Assembly: GCA_023250195.1 (NCBI GenBank)
Contig: JAHFBF010000002.1
Coordinates: 248,001 to 312,000, forward strand
DNA: 64,000 bases
Source: Candidatus Melainabacteria bacterium
GTDB taxonomy: Bacteria; Cyanobacteriota; Vampirovibrionia; 2-02-FULL-35-15
Direction: 5' to 3'
A program made the translations under genes and the position numbers. The notes below the pieces were generated by a model that saw nothing but the letters and a program-made list of their open reading frames with translations, did no database searches and was not told the origin of the DNA. Position 1 is the first letter of the stretch. Each line of letters opens with the position of its first letter. Shown piece after piece: positions 46,356-58,350 of this stretch.

Positions 46356-48068
46356 ATGTCTGTAAGATTACATGGAACAGAGAGAGATGCTCAGCTTCTA
46401 AGAAGCAGGGGTCCGGGAATTCCTGAATTATTGAGGACTAATAAAGTGATTAATAGAGTTAATCAAAATGACTTAAACGAGGAATTTGATCTTATTGTTA
46501 TTGGTGGTGGGATAAATGGCTGTGGAATTGCTAGAGATGCTGCTGAAAGAGGACTTAGAGTTTTATTAATTGAAAAAGAAGATTTTGGTTCAGCAACTTC
46601 CAGTACTAATACCAGATTAAAACATGGAGGTCTTAGATACTTGGAATTTCTTGAATTTAATTTAGTAAGAGAATCGCTTAAAGAAAGAGAATTGTTACTG
46701 AAAAATGCAAATTATTTAGTTAAACCACTTCCTGTTTGCATACCGATTTTTAAAGATGATAAAAGAGGCTATTGGACTATTAAAGCAGGAATGCTTCTAT
46801 ATGATTTATTGTCTATTGGCAAGAGTTTGCCATCTCATAGAATGATGTCAAAAAATGAATTTGAAATTTTTGAGCCAAGCATTAATAGTCAGAATTTAGT
46901 TGGAGCAGCATTATATTATGATGCTCAGATTACTTATCCTGAGAGACTGTGCCTTGCTAATGCGTTAATGGCTAAGAATAACAAAGCTACTGTTATCAAC
47001 CACGCAGAAGTAGTTTTTTTTACAAAGCAAAGGGATTCTATTACTGGAGTAGAGTTCGTTGATAGGCTTACAGGTAAAAAACTTTTTGCAAGAGGGAAGT
47101 TGATTATAAATTCTTCAGGTCCATGGGTTGACTCTATTTGTGGTCTTGCAAGTTCTGATATTGATAGAAAGATTGGAGGAACAAAGGGCAGTCACATTGT
47201 TATCAAGCAATTTGATGGAGGTCCAAAAAATGCAATTTATGTTAGTGCAAAATCTGATAGAAGACCTTTTTTTATTATTCCATGGCAGGATTATTATCTG
47301 ATTGGTACAACTGATATTCATTTTGATGGTGATTTAGATAAATTAAAAATATCAAATAAAGAAATCTCTTATCTAATTAATGAATCTAATAGAGTTTTTA
47401 AAAACAAACAAATTTCCATAGAAGATATAATTTTTTCTTATGCAGGAGTGAGACCACTTCCATTTGTTGGTGATAAAGATCCTGCTGGTATTACCAGACG
47501 ACATTTAATTTTTGATCATAAAAAAGAAGGGGTTTCTAATTTTATATCGATTATTGGTGGCAAACTTACGACTTATCGTAATTTATCAGAAGGGGTAGCT
47601 GATTTAGCGTTTAAAAAATTAGGTTATAAATTTATACCGACAAAAACAAAAAGAAACCCTATCCCAGGAAATTTAAATATTTCAGAAACACGTTTTAAAG
47701 AGACGCTTTCTAGAAGTATTGAAGGGATACCGTTTGAGGTTATTTCCCATCTTGTTGATTTATATGGTACTAATTCTATCGATGTATTAAAATTACTTCA
47801 GAAAGATCCAGGTGGAAGAAAATTATTATCACCAAATGGATTTGATATATTTGGGCAGGTTGACTATGCTGTGACTGAAGAAATGGCATTTACCGTTAGC
47901 GATGTTATTTTAAGAAGACTTTCTTTAGGTCTACGTGAAGGAATGGGCACGGATTGTGTTGAAGCTATAGGTAGTAAATTAAAACAATCTTTAGGACTGA
48001 CTAATGAAGAACTTTCCACACAGGTTGATGATTATTTTTCAAAAGTTGTTAATTTAAGAAAAGTCTAA
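46356..48068 (+). CDS. glpD: FAD-dependent glycerol-3-phosphate dehydrogenase (GlpD type)
   Basis: 570 aa. Oxidises glycerol-3-phosphate to DHAP, donating to quinone at the inner membrane. FAD motif LIVIGGGINGCGIARDAAER (about 47-66), SSTNTRLKHGGLRYLE, IGTTDIHFDGD and GVRPLPFVGDKDPAG, IIGGKLTTYRNLSEG are typical. The first ~40 residues before the FAD fold form an extension (RLHGTERDAQLLRSRGPGIP), not part of the usual enzyme. A C-terminal DAO-C domain is present. The ATG at 46356 has weak SD; TATAAAAT at 46319-46326 is a promoter candidate. Confidence 0.93.
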   Translation: MSVRLHGTERDAQLLRSRGPGIPELLRTNKVINRVNQNDLNEEFDLIVIGGGINGCGIARDAAERGLRVLLIEKEDFGSATSSTNTRLKHGGLRYLEFLEFNLVRESLKERELLLKNANYLVKPLPVCIPIFKDDKRGYWTIKAGMLLYDLLSIGKSLPSHRMMSKNEFEIFEPSINSQNLVGAALYYDAQITYPERLCLANALMAKNNKATVINHAEVVFFTKQRDSITGVEFVDRLTGKKLFARGKLIINSSGPWVDSICGLASSDIDRKIGGTKGSHIVIKQFDGGPKNAIYVSAKSDRRPFFIIPWQDYYLIGTTDIHFDGDLDKLKISNKEISYLINESNRVFKNKQISIEDIIFSYAGVRPLPFVGDKDPAGITRRHLIFDHKKEGVSNFISIIGGKLTTYRNLSEGVADLAFKKLGYKFIPTKTKRNPIPGNLNISETRFKETLSRSIEGIPFEVISHLVDLYGTNSIDVLKLLQKDPGGRKLLSPNGFDIFGQVDYAVTEEMAFTVSDVILRRLSLGLREGMGTDCVEAIGSKLKQSLGLTNEELSTQVDDYFSKVVNLRKV

Positions 48069-50811: not shown

Positions 50812-50925
50812 GAAAAGTTTTGTCCAACTTGTTTGGCAAAACTTGAATAATGGGAGGTTAAGCAGGATAGATGCACTTTGCAAAGCCCGACAAGCGACGA
50901 AGGAGCAAGGAGGGCGGAGTAATTA
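50812..50925 (+). repeat. Dispersed hairpin repeat, full copy, at the 3' end of the KdpD-like gene
   Basis: Hairpin AAGTTTTG / CAAAACTT (50815-50844, inner TCCA/TTGG), then GATGCACTTTGCAAAGCC and ACAAGCGACGAAGGAGCAAG. The repeat reaches the stop codon of the convergent KdpD-like gene. Confidence 0.6.
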
Positions 50926-53148
50926 TGTACTGCCTTCTCTTGTGAAATCTCCAATAACCCATATATGGGAATTGGAGATTTTATTTAATATATTTCTTAT
51001 AATTCCACCTTGCAGTAATGTGAATACTCCTTTTTTTCGTGCTTCACCAAGAACGGTATAATCCGGTTTGACTTTTTCTACGGCACGTATTATTTCGTTT
51101 ACAATATTTTTTCCTTCAACCAGTCTGAAATCTCCACCCAGCTCTACAATTAATTGTTCAAGTTCTATAATTGAAATTTTCTTTTCTTCTGAAAGCTTGC
51201 TGGTCGTTTTTGCTATATGCATAACTATAAGTTCTGCTTGTAATCTGTTGGCAATTCTTGCGGATTTTCTTATTAAACGTAATGTATTTAAATTTATGTC
51301 TACAAAGCATAAAACTTTTGGCTTCTTTTCTCTTGGATGCATCTCATGTTCTACGCTTTCAGCAACTTCTCTAAGGGAAAGTTCTCTGAGTGCAATAAGA
51401 TTTTTTTTCTGAAAAAAATGTGTAAGTGCCTGCTCGATTTTATTCAAAGAATAAATTTTCCCAGCTTTAAGTCTTTCCTGAAGAGCTTCGGGACTTAGAT
51501 CAATTAATACAATTTCACTTGCATGAGAAATTATCCAGTCCGGTACAGTTTCTCTTACTTTAATTCCAGTTACCTGTTCTACAATGTCATTTAAACTTTC
51601 TATGTGCTGGATGTTAACTGTTGACATTACATTAATTCCTGCTCTAAGCAAATATTGAACATCCTGATATCGTTTATTGTTTATTGCTCCTGATACATTA
51701 GTATGTGCGAGCTCATCTATCAATATGCATTCTGGTTTTGCTAAAATTGCACTTTCCAGATCAAATTCCTGTAAATATTTCCCTTTATGTTCAATTAGTT
51801 TGGAAGGTAATATATTTAAGCCTTCCATTAATTCTGCAGTTTCAGGTCTTCCATGTGTATCAATTACTCCCAATAAGACATTTATTCCCTGTTTGTGGAA
51901 TCCCTGGGCATCCTGAAGCATTTTATAGGTTTTTCCAACACCAGGAGCCATACCAATGTAAATTTTCAGTTTTCCCAAATTTAGATTGTCTGAAATTTTA
52001 TCAATTACCTCCAACTCCTTGTTTTTATTTTCTGCCGGAGTTTGATAGCCTTCTTTTTTATTATCAATGATTAATACATCTAGGTTGCTTGTTTTTTCCA
52101 AAACCTTAAAAACTTTAGAATCTGAAAATAACTGTTTCCATCTGGATGTCTTTGAATAACCCATTACGACCTGAGTTATTCTGTTTAATTTAATAAAGTG
52201 AACAAGTTCATCAGCAATGCTTTTTCTTAAATCTTTTACAAGAAAAAAATTTCCATTATATAGTTTAGTTGATTCTCTTAATTGATTGATAATAGTATGA
52301 TCAATATCCTTTGTAAGTATGCATAAAATATCTAAATCGGCATGTGAAATTTTCAATAGTTCACCGGCATGTTTAATAAAATTCAGTGATTTTCCCTTTG
52401 GGCTTGCAGCTACTAAAACTCTGGCTTTAATTTTAGCGCTTAGTTTTTCATTTACAACTTCTACGTCAACCCTTTCAGCAACTAAATTTAAAGCTAGATC
52501 TCTAAGTAAAACCAGATTACTCCTTTTGAAAAAATATTTCATTGCATGTTTTAATTGTTCGGGTGAGTATATTTGTTTTATCTGTAAACGGTTATACAAT
52601 TCATCAACTGATATGTCTATTAAGACCACTTCATCGGCTTGGTTTAAGACCCAGTCGGGAACCGTTTCATTTATTTTTATTCCAATATTTCTTTCTATTA
52701 TGGGGGCAATACTGTCAAGTTGATGAATGTTTAAAGTTGATAGAATACTTATCCCGTTGCTTAGAAGTTCTTCTATGTCCTGGTATCTTTTTTGGTTAAG
52801 TGAGCCAGGGAAGTTATTATGAGCTAATTCATCTATTATTACTGTTGCAGGTCTTCTTTCAATTATTGCCTCAAGATCCAGATCGTAGAACTCATTATTA
52901 TTAACTTTGAAAACTTTTTTTGGAATGATTTCATGTATATTTAGAAGATCCAGATTCTCAGATCTGTTTTGAGCTTCAATATAGCCAACGATAATATCAA
53001 CTCCTTTTTTCTTAAGTTCCTTCCCTTCTTCAAGCATTCTGTAAGTTTTGCCTACTCCGGGAGCCATTCCAAGAAAAATTTTATGTCTTCCTGAAGAGAG
53101 TTTGACAATTTGTTTTAATATTTCGTCTGGTTCTGCTCTTCTTGGCAT
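50923..53148 (-). CDS. Tandem KdpD N-terminal sensor domain protein without histidine kinase
   Basis: 741 aa. Two KdpD-type P-loop/Usp units in tandem. Unit 1: Walker A GMAPGVGKT (27-35), Walker B VIIDELAHN (103-111), Usp-like fold from about 244. Unit 2: Walker A GMAPGVGKT (399-407), ILIDELAHT, Usp-like fold from about 613. Each unit carries KRYQDIEELL/KRYQDVQYLL and ETVPDWV/ETVPDWI, so they are clear duplicates. There is no TM segment, GAF, DHp or HATPase domain, so it cannot phosphorylate KdpE by itself. Truncated KdpD without kinase is known in cyanobacteria, but I know of no doubled form. Located 26 nt downstream of kdpB. Confidence 0.87.
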   Translation of the reverse strand: MPRRAEPDEILKQIVKLSSGRHKIFLGMAPGVGKTYRMLEEGKELKKKGVDIIVGYIEAQNRSENLDLLNIHEIIPKKVFKVNNNEFYDLDLEAIIERRPATVIIDELAHNNFPGSLNQKRYQDIEELLSNGISILSTLNIHQLDSIAPIIERNIGIKINETVPDWVLNQADEVVLIDISVDELYNRLQIKQIYSPEQLKHAMKYFFKRSNLVLLRDLALNLVAERVDVEVVNEKLSAKIKARVLVAASPKGKSLNFIKHAGELLKISHADLDILCILTKDIDHTIINQLRESTKLYNGNFFLVKDLRKSIADELVHFIKLNRITQVVMGYSKTSRWKQLFSDSKVFKVLEKTSNLDVLIIDNKKEGYQTPAENKNKELEVIDKISDNLNLGKLKIYIGMAPGVGKTYKMLQDAQGFHKQGINVLLGVIDTHGRPETAELMEGLNILPSKLIEHKGKYLQEFDLESAILAKPECILIDELAHTNVSGAINNKRYQDVQYLLRAGINVMSTVNIQHIESLNDIVEQVTGIKVRETVPDWIISHASEIVLIDLSPEALQERLKAGKIYSLNKIEQALTHFFQKKNLIALRELSLREVAESVEHEMHPREKKPKVLCFVDINLNTLRLIRKSARIANRLQAELIVMHIAKTTSKLSEEKKISIIELEQLIVELGGDFRLVEGKNIVNEIIRAVEKVKPDYTVLGEARKKGVFTLLQGGIIRNILNKISNSHIWVIGDFTREGST

Positions 53149-53174: not shown

Positions 53175-55190
53175 TCATTTAATAAATCTTTCAACTAATA
53201 TGACTATTAATTTAATACTGACAAATGGAGCTATTAATCCTCCCATGCCAAATATTATTAAATTTTGTAATACAAGGTACTTATGGGTCAAGTTTTTAAT
53301 TTTAATTCCATTTAGTGCAACTGGCATAAGTGATGGTATTAATAATGCGTTAAGAGCAAGTACCGATATTATCATGGATATATTAGAGGTTAAATTTAAG
53401 ATATTTAAAATTTGGAATTCTTTGAAAGGAATAATTGCTGGAAGAATTATGATACATTTAGCTATGTTAGATGTGAATGAAAACATTGTAAGAGAAGTTC
53501 TGGTTATTATTAATTGTTTCCCTGTTTTGATTATGTCAATTATTTTTGCGGGATTAGAATCCAGATCAATTAAGTTTGAAGCTTCTTTTGCTGCTATAGT
53601 TCCTGAATTCATTGCTAAACCAATATCTGCTTGTGCAAGTGCAGGTGCATCATTTGTACCATCCCCAATCATTCCTACAATTAATCCTTTTGCTTGATTT
53701 TCCCTTATTAATAAGATTTTATCCTGTGGCTTTGCCTGAGCAATATATTCATCAATTCCTGCTTCTTTTGTAATTACTTTAGCAGTTAAATTATTATCCC
53801 CTGTACACATTATGGTTTTTATTCCTGTGTTGTGGAGTTCTTTAAATCGCTCTTTTAGAGATGTCTTAATAATATCCTTTAAATGTATTAATCCTATGAT
53901 TTCATTATTTTTTGATATTAATAGTGGTGTGCCTCCTTGAATAGAAATACTTTCCACTACTTGATCAGTGTTTTCCCAGATCTTTCCATTTTTGCTAATA
54001 ACCATTTTTTTTATTGCGTCACTGGCACCTTTCCTTAAAATCTCACCATTTTCTAAATCAATCCCACTCATTCTTATATGTGAGTTGAATTCATGAGGAA
54101 TGACTTTCATTTCTTTTATTCCATCTTCTATGCCATATCTTCTTGAAAGGGCAAGAATGGATTTTCCTTCCGGTGTTTGATCATAGTAACTGCTCATATA
54201 TGCTGCTTTTGCTACGTCAATTATAGAATTAGCACCAAGAGAGATAAATTCAGTTGCTATTCTGTTTCCAAATGTAATTGTTCCTGTCTTATCTAAATAG
54301 ATAATATTTAAATTTGATGCTATTTCAAGAGTCTGTTCTGACATTGCAAGGACATTTAACTTATTCATTCTGTCAAATCCTGCAATTCTAATTGAGTTGA
54401 TCAATCCGCTAATTGTAGTTGGTATAAGAGCTATTAATAAAGCTATCCAAAAACTTATTTCTATTTTTATCTTTAAGTAATTAAAAACTGTTATTAGTAT
54501 AGTAACTAAACATAGAGATAAGATTGTAGATGTTATTACCAGTGTGTTTAAACGGATTTCACCAGGAGTCTTCTGTCTTCCAATGCCTTCAGCAATGTTG
54601 ACCATTTGGTCTAAATAGGATTGTCCCTGTTCAGAGGTTATTTTTATAAGTAACCAGTCGGTTAAAATTCTTGTTCCGCCTGTTACTGAGCTTGAAGTAT
54701 CAGTGCTTGGTTCTTTAAGTACAGGAGAAGATTCTCCTGTAATAGCCGATTCATCTACAGTTGCAACACCATCAATAACTTCACCATCTATTGGTATAAG
54801 ATCTCCTTCCTCTACTTTAATGATGTCATTTTTATTTAATTGTGAAGTGAAAATGTATTCTATTAAGCCATTATCCAAAACTCTTTTAACTTCTATATCT
54901 CCATGTACAATTCGTAAGCTGTCTACCAATGCTTTTGCATAATTTCTTGCAAGGCTTTCCGCAAGGTTTGAAAATAATATTGTTAACAAAAGTATTAGTG
55001 AGATTATTAGGTTAATCTCTTTTGTAAGTGTTGTTGATCCAAATAAATCCGGCTTAATAGTTAAAACTACCATTACAATCAAGCAACATTCAGTTATAAA
55101 TAAAACAGGATTTCTGATTGTTGTTATTGGATTAAAAAGTTTAATTGAATCAAGTAGTGATCTTTGTGCTATGTTGTAATGATTGATCAT
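53175..55190 (-). CDS. kdpB: Potassium-transporting P-type ATPase subunit KdpB
   Basis: 671 aa, complete P-type ATPase core with the Kdp pattern IPTTISGLINSIRIAGFDRM and NVLAMSEQTLEIA. TGES at 151-154 (Ser154 matches the regulatory phosphoserine of E. coli KdpB), phosphorylation Asp300 in DKTGTIT, GDGTNDAPALAQADIGLAM hinge. Normally hydrolyses ATP to drive K+ through KdpA with KdpC. In TM5 the Asp of the Asp-x2-Lys dipole (D583/K586 in E. coli) is Asn575 here, with Lys578 kept. Neither kdpA (usually upstream) nor kdpC (usually between kdpB and kdpD) is present. See findings. Confidence 0.92.
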   Translation of the reverse strand: MINHYNIAQRSLLDSIKLFNPITTIRNPVLFITECCLIVMVVLTIKPDLFGSTTLTKEINLIISLILLLTILFSNLAESLARNYAKALVDSLRIVHGDIEVKRVLDNGLIEYIFTSQLNKNDIIKVEEGDLIPIDGEVIDGVATVDESAITGESSPVLKEPSTDTSSSVTGGTRILTDWLLIKITSEQGQSYLDQMVNIAEGIGRQKTPGEIRLNTLVITSTILSLCLVTILITVFNYLKIKIEISFWIALLIALIPTTISGLINSIRIAGFDRMNKLNVLAMSEQTLEIASNLNIIYLDKTGTITFGNRIATEFISLGANSIIDVAKAAYMSSYYDQTPEGKSILALSRRYGIEDGIKEMKVIPHEFNSHIRMSGIDLENGEILRKGASDAIKKMVISKNGKIWENTDQVVESISIQGGTPLLISKNNEIIGLIHLKDIIKTSLKERFKELHNTGIKTIMCTGDNNLTAKVITKEAGIDEYIAQAKPQDKILLIRENQAKGLIVGMIGDGTNDAPALAQADIGLAMNSGTIAAKEASNLIDLDSNPAKIIDIIKTGKQLIITRTSLTMFSFTSNIAKCIIILPAIIPFKEFQILNILNLTSNISMIISVLALNALLIPSLMPVALNGIKIKNLTHKYLVLQNLIIFGMGGLIAPFVSIKLIVILVERFIK

Positions 55191-55343: not shown

Positions 55344-55466
55344 ATGAAAGATTTTAGTCCTCAAATTATAAAAAGAATTGACAAAATCTATAGGATCTGG
55401 CAAAAGGGATATCAAAAACTTTTTACGGTGAGTAATAACAATTTAAAATTATTCAGATTTTGTTAA
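55344..55466 (+). CDS. Possible small ORF (40 aa)
   Basis: Reads MKDFSPQIIKRIDKIYRIWQ onward to a stop at 55464-55466. It runs into the 3' end of the convergent 55449 gene. Basic and not hydrophobic, so it is not KdpF. Only the plausible codon pattern supports it; it may be chance. Confidence 0.15.
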   Translation: MKDFSPQIIKRIDKIYRIWQKGYQKLFTVSNNNLKLFRFC

Positions 55467-55961
55467 GATTGAAAAAGTTTTATACTCTCCAATGAACTTT
55501 CCGTTTTTATATTGCAATACGATACTTTCGGAATGAATTGTATTGTCTTCAGTTAATTTCAGATGATCAATTAATATGGACTTCCATTTGTTTTTATCAT
55601 TTGTTTTAAAGTTTGTTACTCTTTCACTGATAGCTTCTCTTTCGTTCAGTAATTTTATGGTTCCTGAACTATTTGTCCATTTACCACCTTTCCATAAAGC
55701 TTTGAGAAAGTTTACTTCTTTTCTTTTTGTTGCTGCTGATTTTATTTCTAGGTTGGATTCTGTAGTTGTACCGGTAAGAATGTAAGGGCAATTTGAGCTT
55801 GTAACTATTGTCTGCATATTCCAGTTACCTAAAAACCCTTCTTTTGCGTTAACTGTTTTTTCTTTTGGAATTGTTATAGCGTTTGTAATCTGCCAGTTAT
55901 TACTCAATAAGCAGCTTATTGAAATTATCAGACAAAAAATAGGTTTTTTTAAATTATTCAT
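55449..55961 (-). CDS. Hypothetical exported protein
   Basis: 170 aa. Signal peptide IFCLIISISCLLSNNWQITN, then GFLGNWNMQTIVTSSNCPYI, a beta-rich globular part resembling small secreted proteins with a lipocalin-like GxW pattern. No assigned family. It has no clear partner and is transcribed away from cysS. Confidence 0.68.
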   Translation of the reverse strand: MNNLKKPIFCLIISISCLLSNNWQITNAITIPKEKTVNAKEGFLGNWNMQTIVTSSNCPYILTGTTTESNLEIKSAATKRKEVNFLKALWKGGKWTNSSGTIKLLNEREAISERVTNFKTNDKNKWKSILIDHLKLTEDNTIHSESIVLQYKNGKFIGEYKTFSILTKSE

Positions 55962-56083: not shown

Positions 56084-56953
56084 TTAGTTTTTCTCGCTGA
56101 TTTCTTCATCTATTTCTTTAAAATCAACATTCGAGTCAGAATCAATGATAAATCCATTAAAGTTGGAGTAAAAGGTAAGCTTGGATTTGATTGTTTTATA
56201 CATATCACTTATATCATCATCAGAAAGTACAGTAGCATGTTTAGTTAAATCAATATTATAAGCACATGTTATATCATTCCATTTTATGTCTAACTTTTCA
56301 AGTTTGTCCAAATCATCAATGAGAAAAATGACCTTGTCTGTATAGTCACAAACATTTTCTGCAAAACTTTTTTTAGGTCCTTCATAAGCACTAAACCAAA
56401 AAGGAAAATCAGCAATGAATTGCTTATTTCTTTTTTTTGTTTCTATGTAAATAGCTGAATATGCATCAAGCATTTGATTTAATGTCTGAACTTGAAACTC
56501 AACAGCATTTTTCCAGATATTTATTTTATTGGGCTGGGTTTTAAGAATTATTCCATCTATATGATTTTCATACTGATCAAGAGCGGCTATAACATTTACA
56601 AGTCCTTTTCTTCCAAACCAACTGTCTCTTCCTATAAATAAATAAAGCTTTGCTTCATATTTATGAGCGATTTTATGTAATTTTTGTAAAAGGTTTTCAT
56701 TGCCTTTTTCTGCCAAAATCCACTGTTCAATATATATGGCTTTGGGTCTTTTTGATTTAACTAATTCTTCAACTGATTTAACGTTTTTTGCAGCTCTGAC
56801 TGAAATATTTATGTGATCTAATTCAGTTAATAAATGCTTTTTGTCAATTTGTTCATTAATTTCAGGCTTTGCTTCCGATGAGCAGCAAGAGGTTATGGCT
56901 ATAACAATTGCAATAGCTATAGAAATTGATTTTTTCTTGAAGTCGTTTGTCAT
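56084..56953 (-). CDS. Putative lipoprotein, TIM-barrel-like
   Basis: 289 aa from the ATG at 56953; an ATG at 56974 overlaps cysS by 19 bp. N-terminal signal SIAIAIVIAITSC ends in a lipobox (ITSC), so lipid attachment is likely. The mature part, IYIEQWILAEKGNENLLQKL, LYLFIGRDSWFGRKGLVNVI and FNGFIIDSDSNVD, resembles a (beta/alpha)8 glycosidase-like fold, which is only a guess. Directly downstream of cysS but function unrelated. Confidence 0.62.
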   Translation of the reverse strand: MTNDFKKKSISIAIAIVIAITSCCSSEAKPEINEQIDKKHLLTELDHINISVRAAKNVKSVEELVKSKRPKAIYIEQWILAEKGNENLLQKLHKIAHKYEAKLYLFIGRDSWFGRKGLVNVIAALDQYENHIDGIILKTQPNKINIWKNAVEFQVQTLNQMLDAYSAIYIETKKRNKQFIADFPFWFSAYEGPKKSFAENVCDYTDKVIFLIDDLDKLEKLDIKWNDITCAYNIDLTKHATVLSDDDISDMYKTIKSKLTFYSNFNGFIIDSDSNVDFKEIDEEISEKN

Positions 56954-56955
56954 TA

Positions 56956-58350
56956 TTAAGATTTGATTCGCCATTTATATGTGTTTTCAGGAAGATCTTT
57001 TATTTCTATATTTGTCTCATTTAAGATATCCCTTATTTTATCTCCACTAATAAAATCTTTTTTTAATTTACACTCTTTTCTCCATATCATTAACTTATCA
57101 ATTATTTTTGATATTAATTTAGTACTACTCCCTGTATTTGTTTTGGGGTTTAATGATAAGTCAAATCCTAGTACACAGCATAAATTATACAAAGTTGCCT
57201 GTAATTTGAGTTTTATTTTCTCTTCATTTTCTTTATGTATATTATCAGTTAGTTTAAAAAGAATAGCTAATGCCTGAGGGCTATTAAAGTCATCTGACAT
57301 TGCGCTTTTAAATTCTTTAGTATATTCATTTTCTTCATTAGGTGGATTAATAGAGTTAGTTGTGTAGTCTGACAATGCTTCAGTAATTCTGTCTATTCCG
57401 TTTTTGGCTGCAGTTATTCCTTCTTCTGTATAGTTTACAGGCATTCTGTAATGGCTGTTAAGCATAAAAAATCTAAGTGCATTACCTGTTGTATTTTGTA
57501 GAGCATCTTTTATCGTTATGAAATTTCCTTCTGACTTTGCCATTTTCTTCCCATTAACTAATATCATGCCGTTATGGAGCCAATAGTTTGCAAATTTGGA
57601 TTTTGTAAATGATTCACTCTGTGCAATTTCATTTTCATGGTGAGGAAATATTAAATCATCTCCTCCTCCGTGGATATCAAGATTGGTTTTATATATTGCA
57701 TAGTTCATTGCAGAACATTCAAGATGCCATCCTGGTCTTCCTTTTCCCCATGGGCTTTCAAAGCCATGATCATTTGAATCTTTAACTCCTTTCCAGAGTG
57801 CAAAATCCAGAGGATGTTTCTTTTTAATATTTACCTCAATTCTTCCAAAACCTTTTTCCAGTTCGCTGATTGGCTGACCTTTAAGCTGTCCGTAGTTTTT
57901 AAATGATGATACTGAGAAATAAACATCACTTTCGATCTGATATGCAGAGCTGTTTTTGATAAGCCCTTCGATAAAACTAATCATATTTGGTATATGTTGA
58001 GTAGCAGTAGGCTCAAAGTCAGGCCAGTCAACATTCAATGCATGCATATCTTCGTGAAAAGAATGAGCATATATTCTTGCAACTTTATCAGGATGTAAAT
58101 TAAGCTCATTAGCTTTGTTTATTATTTTGTCGTCTATATCTGTAATATTTCTTGTCCATATAACTTTATAATTTAAAGATCTTAAAAATCTCACTATAAA
58201 ATCCCAGGTTATTGATGCTCTTGCATGACCAATGTGTGAATGATCATATACAGTTGGACCACAGGTATAAATATTTAAATCAGGGGAGTTGATTGGTTTT
58301 AGTATTTCTTTTTTTCGTGTCAGTGAATTATATACAGTAATTTCTTTCAT
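56956..58350 (-). CDS. cysS: Cysteinyl-tRNA synthetase
   Basis: 464 aa, class Ia synthetase. HIGH-type motif HIGHARASI (HIGH) near residue 40 in TCGPTVYDHSHIGHARAS and KMSKS-type motif KMAKSEGN; zinc ligands include TCGP (Cys), SAMNYAIYK with CSAMN (Cys) and HHENEIAQSE (His). Complete with C-terminal helical bundle. It begins near 58350, where ybeY ends; 16 nt separate them. Confidence 0.96.
   Translation of the reverse strand: MKEITVYNSLTRKKEILKPINSPDLNIYTCGPTVYDHSHIGHARASITWDFIVRFLRSLNYKVIWTRNITDIDDKIINKANELNLHPDKVARIYAHSFHEDMHALNVDWPDFEPTATQHIPNMISFIEGLIKNSSAYQIESDVYFSVSSFKNYGQLKGQPISELEKGFGRIEVNIKKKHPLDFALWKGVKDSNDHGFESPWGKGRPGWHLECSAMNYAIYKTNLDIHGGGDDLIFPHHENEIAQSESFTKSKFANYWLHNGMILVNGKKMAKSEGNFITIKDALQNTTGNALRFFMLNSHYRMPVNYTEEGITAAKNGIDRITEALSDYTTNSINPPNEENEYTKEFKSAMSDDFNSPQALAILFKLTDNIHKENEEKIKLKLQATLYNLCCVLGFDLSLNPKTNTGSSTKLISKIIDKLMIWRKECKLKKDFISGDKIRDILNETNIEIKDLPENTYKWRIKS

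What the first reader, a model, noticed from the sequence alone, without database searches (positions are those of the whole stretch)
50923..53148. Tandem duplication of the KdpD sensor unit with no histidine kinase
Both halves contain a full P-loop/ETVPDW/Usp unit with intact Walker A, so both may bind nucleotide. The kinase part is absent, yet the gene still follows kdpB. A double sensor fused head to tail may act as a soluble regulator, for example binding cyclic di-AMP or ATP through the Usp parts, or as a partner of KdpB directly.
Basis: partly seen in the sequence, partly recalled or inferred. Interest (0 to 1): 0.6.

Follow-up and report, generated by a model that had tools for sequence, protein, structure and literature searches.

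The report
Doubled KdpD regulator without histidine kinase
A group of non-photosynthetic relatives of cyanobacteria carries a fused double copy of a known potassium-pump regulator; it probably switches the pump off by tagging it with phosphate, and the doubled layout, found in every genome of the group, is a new variant of a known protein.

Summary
Window 50923-53148 (minus strand) encodes a 741-aa protein made of two KdpD N-terminal units (P-loop plus Usp) with no histidine kinase. It is not an oddity of one genome: all 11 genomes of this melainabacterial order have exactly this form as their only KdpD. None of the other matching genomes among 386 sampled in the phylum has it. No histidine-kinase KdpD exists in the order, not even split. 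The 'solo' KdpB is derived: eight relatives have a full kdpA2-B2-C2-DD operon at the same place. The window's lineage lost kdpA2 and kdpC2 but keeps a canonical kdpABC operon without kdpD elsewhere. No diadenylate cyclase was found in the order, which argues against cyclic di-AMP control. The best explanation rests on work showing that the KdpD N-terminal domain is an atypical serine kinase that inactivates KdpB: this is a tandem, soluble version of that kinase. Its C-terminal half is canonical. Its N-terminal half keeps the catalytic residues but has replaced 26 otherwise conserved positions. KdpB2 kept its cytosolic machinery, target serine included, but changed in its membrane helices after KdpA2/C2 were lost. 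New variant of a known kind; function untested.

The parts
50923..53148 (-). kdpDD: doubled KdpD N-terminal (ASK-Usp-ASK-Usp) protein, 741 aa, no histidine kinase
52453..53085 (-). N-half KdpD/ASK P-loop domain (residues 22-232)
   Evidence: PF02702 265 bits; catalytic residues K34, Y36, D106, E107, R187 kept
53044..53070 (-). Walker A of N half, GMAPGVGKT (residues 27-35)
   Evidence: sequence
52063..52428 (-). N-half Usp-like domain (residues 241-362)
   Evidence: NF038185 match covers residues 3-363; not found by Pfam Usp
51340..51975 (-). C-half KdpD/ASK P-loop domain (residues 392-603)
   Evidence: PF02702 304 bits; PDB 2r8r match; K406, Y408, D478, E479, R559 kept
51928..51954 (-). Walker A of C half, GMAPGVGKT (residues 399-407)
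   Evidence: sequence
50944..51324 (-). C-half Usp domain (residues 609-735), with D617 at the c-di-AMP specificity serine position
   Evidence: PF00582 weak
53175..55190 (-). kdpB2: divergent second KdpB, 671 aa
   Evidence: TIGR01497 776 bits against 1026 for the canonical copy
54729..54740 (-). TGES motif of KdpB2 (S154 = E. coli KdpB S162, the published ASK target)
53466..53468 (-). KdpB2 N575, where E. coli has D583, needed for K+ transport
   Evidence: PMC12629597

Best explanation
KdpDD is a soluble, fused pair of atypical serine kinase (ASK) domains of the short-KdpD type. Inferred mechanism: the C half, and possibly also the N half, binds ATP and phosphorylates the TGES serine of KdpB when K+ is sufficient, freezing the pump. 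This is post-translational control only, because the order has no KdpD histidine kinase. The natural target is KdpB2, encoded just upstream, and probably also KdpB1, whose operon has no kdpD. The two halves arose by one tandem duplication in the ancestor of the order. The C half kept the general KdpD surface. The N half kept the ATP and catalytic residues but changed otherwise conserved surface positions, so it is probably a regulatory or target-specialised partner held in cis, doing within one chain what two single chains would otherwise do. Signal input is probably not cyclic di-AMP; another nucleotide bound by the Usp domains, or ATP itself, is more likely. Shown here: anatomy, conservation, gene context, purifying selection, absence of HK and DAC. 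Shown elsewhere for homologues: the phosphorylation. Inferred: activity, target, division of labour and signal.
For: E. coli and D. geothermalis KdpD N-terminal units phosphorylate KdpB S162; in E. coli Walker A, W39/R190 and D109/E110 are required, and short KdpDs without HK are mostly found in species without KdpE (PMC11018627). The required residues are present in both halves of nearly all sequences: GKT, aromatic, D, E, R (exceptions are single changes in three N halves, GKS in G008, GTGKT in G010 and Cys for the aromatic in G007). KdpB1 and KdpB2 keep TGES in all genomes, and KdpB2 keeps S162, E161, D307, F377 and K395. The doubled gene is 3' of kdpB2 or kdpC2 in all 11 genomes and is the only KdpD there. 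No DUF4118 chain and no DAC. N halves and C halves each form one clade, 100/100; N plus C as one clade is not rejected (p-AU 0.45). Synonymous far exceeds nonsynonymous change in all four domains (dN 0.04-0.15 against dS 1.0-2.1, window to G002). 26 near-universal KdpD positions are replaced in all or nearly all N halves, against 9 in C halves.
Against: No biochemical test. The 26 replaced N-half positions (HGR, HTN, NVQHLESLND and others) could mean that half is inactive as a kinase. In the window's genome the adjacent KdpB2 has lost its KdpA2/KdpC2 partners and carries Asn at the D583 position, which in E. coli leaves little or no activity, so phosphorylating KdpB2 would have no obvious transport consequence there. 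The AlphaFold model is too weak (pLDDT 64, pTM 0.41) to show how the halves pack.
Confidence: 0.58

Rival explanations
1. KdpDD is a non-phosphorylating adaptor or inhibitor: both P-loops bind nucleotide, and the protein binds the KdpB cytosolic domains stoichiometrically and holds them, a direct structural partner of KdpB.
For: Conserved gene pairing with kdpB2 even after kdpA2 and kdpC2 are gone; strong divergence of the N-half surface; KdpB2 conserved in its cytosolic domains but not in TM5-7 in the reduced lineages.
Against: All catalytic residues needed for phosphotransfer in E. coli are kept in both halves, which a pure binder would not need; the C-half ASK domain is the slowest evolving of the four.
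Confidence: 0.2
2. KdpDD is a cyclic di-AMP sensor, as short KdpD in Deinococcus geothermalis is.
For: Short KdpD of D. geothermalis is stimulated by c-di-AMP (PMC11018627); 8 of 10 N-half Usp domains keep the Ser equivalent to S. aureus S244.
Against: No PF02457 diadenylate cyclase in 11 of 11 genomes, while the same search rings in 11 of 14 control genomes. C-half Usp has Asp (10) or Glu (1) at the S244 position; Asp is typical of ATP-binding Usp and was predicted to clash with c-di-AMP (PMC8214093). D. radiodurans has Ala there, so the residue alone is not decisive.
Confidence: 0.06
3. kdpB2-kdpDD in the window's genome is a decaying remnant of the kdp2 operon with no present function.
For: kdpA2 and kdpC2 are lost; KdpB2 carries changes at 16 of 157 otherwise invariant sites, including D583N.
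Against: Both frames are intact at about 17-26% protein divergence from G002; dN/dS is about 0.1 in KdpB2 cytosolic domains, about 0.23 in TM5-7 and about 0.15 or less across KdpDD; the same kdpB2-DD pair is kept after an apparently independent loss in G005.
Confidence: 0.12

Closest known systems
Short KdpD (KdpD/Usp ASK without HK; D. geothermalis KdpD; NCBIfam NF038185 KdpD_non_kinase)
   Same: Same P-loop plus Usp unit, no HK, same place 3' of the kdp structural genes, same catalytic residues.
   Different: Two units fused in one chain with an asymmetrically diverged N half; no diadenylate cyclase in the genomes; a domain survey of 5495 species does not mention a doubled form in the text read (PMC11018627).
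E. coli KdpD (tandem serine histidine kinase)
   Same: N-terminal ASK domain and Usp domain.
   Different: No TM, GAF or DHpCA kinase part in the protein, and no KdpD membrane part anywhere in the order. 'Tandem' there means ASK plus HK, not two ASKs.
Cyanobacterial and Deinococcus kdp operons with truncated kdpD-N
   Same: The kdp2 operon is of the cyanobacterial type (KdpA2 37-38% identical to the nearest cyanobacterial KdpA against 29-36% to KdpA1 of the order); kdpD-N follows the pump genes (PMC5716572; D. radiodurans record).
   Different: Single kdpD-N there, with a separate HK/RR pair in D. radiodurans; doubled here, with partial operon loss in some species.
P. syringae KdpD N-terminal domain structure 2R8R
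   Same: Best sequence and fold match.
   Different: Single domain; no double unit in the PDB by sequence search.

Membership tests
KdpD N-terminal sensor domain (PF02702) | Match above curated cut-off | tested here: met
   Both halves, 265 and 304 bits against a cut-off of 26.1
KdpD-like non-kinase (NF038185) | Match over the whole unit above curated cut-off, no kinase domain | tested here: inconclusive
   Whole protein 670 bits against 550, reached only by summing two units; each half alone is 315 and 369 bits, below 550, though each covers nearly the whole 373-position profile
KdpD atypical serine kinase | Walker A, aromatic/Arg adenine pair, Walker B Asp-Glu | tested here: met
   both halves of the window protein (Tyr in place of E. 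coli W39)
KdpD atypical serine kinase | Phosphorylates KdpB TGES serine | not testable with these tools
   Target serine present in both KdpB copies
c-di-AMP-controlled short KdpD | Diadenylate cyclase in the genome | tested here: not met
   0 of 11 genomes
c-di-AMP-controlled short KdpD | S. aureus Usp c-di-AMP motif | tested here: not met
   Not met in either half; also not met in photosynthetic cyanobacteria and D. radiodurans, so the motif is of limited use outside Firmicutes
KdpD sensor histidine kinase (two-component) | TM/DUF4118 and DHpCA kinase domains | tested here: not met
   None in the protein; no DUF4118 in any genome of the order
KdpB (TIGR01497) for the upstream gene | Match above curated cut-off and catalytic residues | tested here: met
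   776 bits against 527.9; S162, E161, D307, F377, K395 present, D583 absent

The most novel reading that the evidence does not exclude
In the window's lineage and in G005, KdpB2 has stopped being a pump subunit and, with KdpDD, forms a non-transporting P-type-ATPase/serine-kinase pair: KdpB2's cytosolic domains serve as a substrate, decoy or sensor for the double ASK, whose two halves have split the work (canonical C half, re-targeted or regulatory N half), controlling the remaining KdpA1B1C1 pump without any two-component system or cyclic di-AMP.
Probability: 0.22. Interest if true: 0.68.

Novelty: new variant of a known kind. Interest (0 to 1): 0.45.

Why it matters
KdpD's serine kinase activity on KdpB was published only in 2024. 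An order in which that part alone was kept, doubled and partly re-shaped, with no histidine kinase, no cyclic di-AMP synthesis and sometimes with its own pump partners gone, separates the serine-kinase role from every other KdpD role and gives a natural test of what controls it.

Tried and rejected
(1) I first took the KdpA2 selectivity filter as newly rewritten; comparison with photosynthetic cyanobacterial KdpA showed that most differences are ordinary for the cyanobacterial type, so I dropped it as a claim. (2) A tree of neighbouring genes put G003 with G000 at full support, implying a regain or separate losses; without glpD, whose identities are out of line, and with three other neighbours added, the grouping vanished. 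(3) The AlphaFold model of the whole protein gave no reliable arrangement of the halves; matches to tandem Usp proteins are only a hint. (4) A search for doubled forms in other phyla could not be run (the single genome-contig scan finds close relatives only); listed plasmid hits were all single units of about 1 kb. (5) No riboswitch in the window at Rfam thresholds.

Full report
What is there. Window 50923-53148 on the minus strand is one intact 741-aa gene. Pfam and NCBIfam find the KdpD N-terminal unit twice and no kinase domain. The two halves are 34% identical (E = 1e-68), so the doubling is real and old. Upstream, 26 bp away, lies a kdpB gene (53175-55190, minus).

Genome context. PF02702 occurs nowhere else in the 2.2-Mb genome (98.9% complete), so there is no histidine-kinase KdpD, and DUF4118, the KdpD membrane part, is absent from the whole order. 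The genome does have a complete canonical kdpA-kdpB-kdpC operon on another contig, with no kdpD beside it. The window's KdpB is therefore a second, divergent copy (776 against 1026 bits).

Relatives. Named hits are Candidatus Melainabacteria metagenome-assembled genomes. All 11 genomes of the order, in 8 genera, have exactly one KdpD gene, the doubled one; in G004 it is interrupted by a stop. None of the other matching genomes among 386 sampled across the phylum has two units in one frame; they have single units of about 370-450 aa or longer forms with one unit. Gene order around the locus is conserved. In eight genomes the operon is kdpA2-B2-C2-DD or the part of it that the contig shows (G009's contig ends at kdpB2). 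In the window's genome, G002 and G005, kdpA2 and kdpC2 are gone and kdpB2-DD remain. KdpA2 is closest, outside the order, to the KdpA of photosynthetic cyanobacteria, so kdp2 is the cyanobacterial-type operon with its short KdpD doubled. The loss of kdpA2/kdpC2 probably happened once in G000 and G002 (closest in all nine neighbouring genes compared, and sisters in the KdpB2 tree) and once in G005. The branching inside the genus is not firmly resolved.

How it most likely works. In E. coli and D. geothermalis the KdpD N-terminal part acts as an atypical serine kinase that phosphorylates the TGES serine of KdpB and inhibits the pump; the residues needed in E. coli are Walker A, an aromatic/Arg pair and Walker B Asp-Glu (PMC11018627). 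Both halves of the window protein have all of them, and both KdpB copies have the TGES serine. I therefore read KdpDD as a soluble tandem serine kinase that provides post-translational control only. Activity, target and signal are inference.

Two unequal halves. Of 89 positions near-universal in other KdpDs, 26 are absent from all or nearly all N halves and 9 from C halves. The N half lost HGR (to QNR), HTN (to HNN) and VNVQHLESLND (to LNIHQLESIAP), yet keeps its own version of these across the genera compared and evolves under strong constraint. Each half is one clade with full support, and a common origin of N and C is not rejected. This fits a duplication followed by specialisation of the N half.

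Signal. The order has no diadenylate cyclase (the same search rings in 11 of 14 controls). The C-half Usp has Asp, once Glu, at the position of the serine that S. aureus KdpD uses for cyclic di-AMP. Cyclic di-AMP control is therefore unlikely, though that one residue is not decisive, since D. radiodurans has Ala there.

KdpB2 after loss of its partners. At 157 sites invariant in E. coli KdpB, all KdpB1 and the KdpB2 copies of the eight other genomes, the window's KdpB2 differs at 16: 11 of 31 in TM5-7 against 3 of 105 in the cytosolic domains (p = 4e-6). G002 has 9 of 31 against 0 of 105 (p = 6e-7) and G005 8 of 31 against 4 of 105 (p = 8e-4). The eight other genomes, tested one at a time, show 0-7 changes, most of them outside TM5-7. 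These tests treat sites as independent, domain borders are approximate, and G000 and G002 share history. D583 is Asn in the window and Ser in G002; D583N gave little or no activity in E. coli (PMC12629597). The frames are intact and dN/dS stays well below 1. So KdpB2 seems to be kept for its cytosolic machinery rather than as an ordinary pump.

Limits. Eleven genomes, mostly fragmented drafts, with absences resting on 79-99% completeness; phyla outside this one not searched for doubled forms; no reliable model of the double unit; no experiment.

Noticed in passing
G000 contig C2 18113-22448 (L007:6114-10448): Complete canonical kdpA-kdpB-kdpC operon with no regulator gene next to it; present at other places in 10 of 11 genomes of the order (not found in G001).
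   Followed up: partly
L087, L089, L090, L092, L093, L094, L096 (kdpA2): KdpA2 shows changes in the selectivity filter beyond the cyanobacterial type (SF2 GGG to G[LQ]S in most, SF1 DQQHY to CQTHH), so ion selectivity of the kdp2 pump may differ.
   Followed up: partly
L090:4773-5300 (G004): The doubled gene is interrupted by an in-frame TAG in G004 (draft assembly, 180 contigs); real break or sequencing error not settled.
   Followed up: no
window 46356-48068 (glpD): glpD identity between species is out of line with its neighbours (76% to G003, 56% to G002), suggesting replacement or gene conversion.
   Followed up: partly
window 55449-55961 and 56084-56974: Two conserved genes upstream of kdp2 with only sub-threshold family matches (one faintly like protease inhibitor Inh), syntenic across the order.
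   Followed up: no
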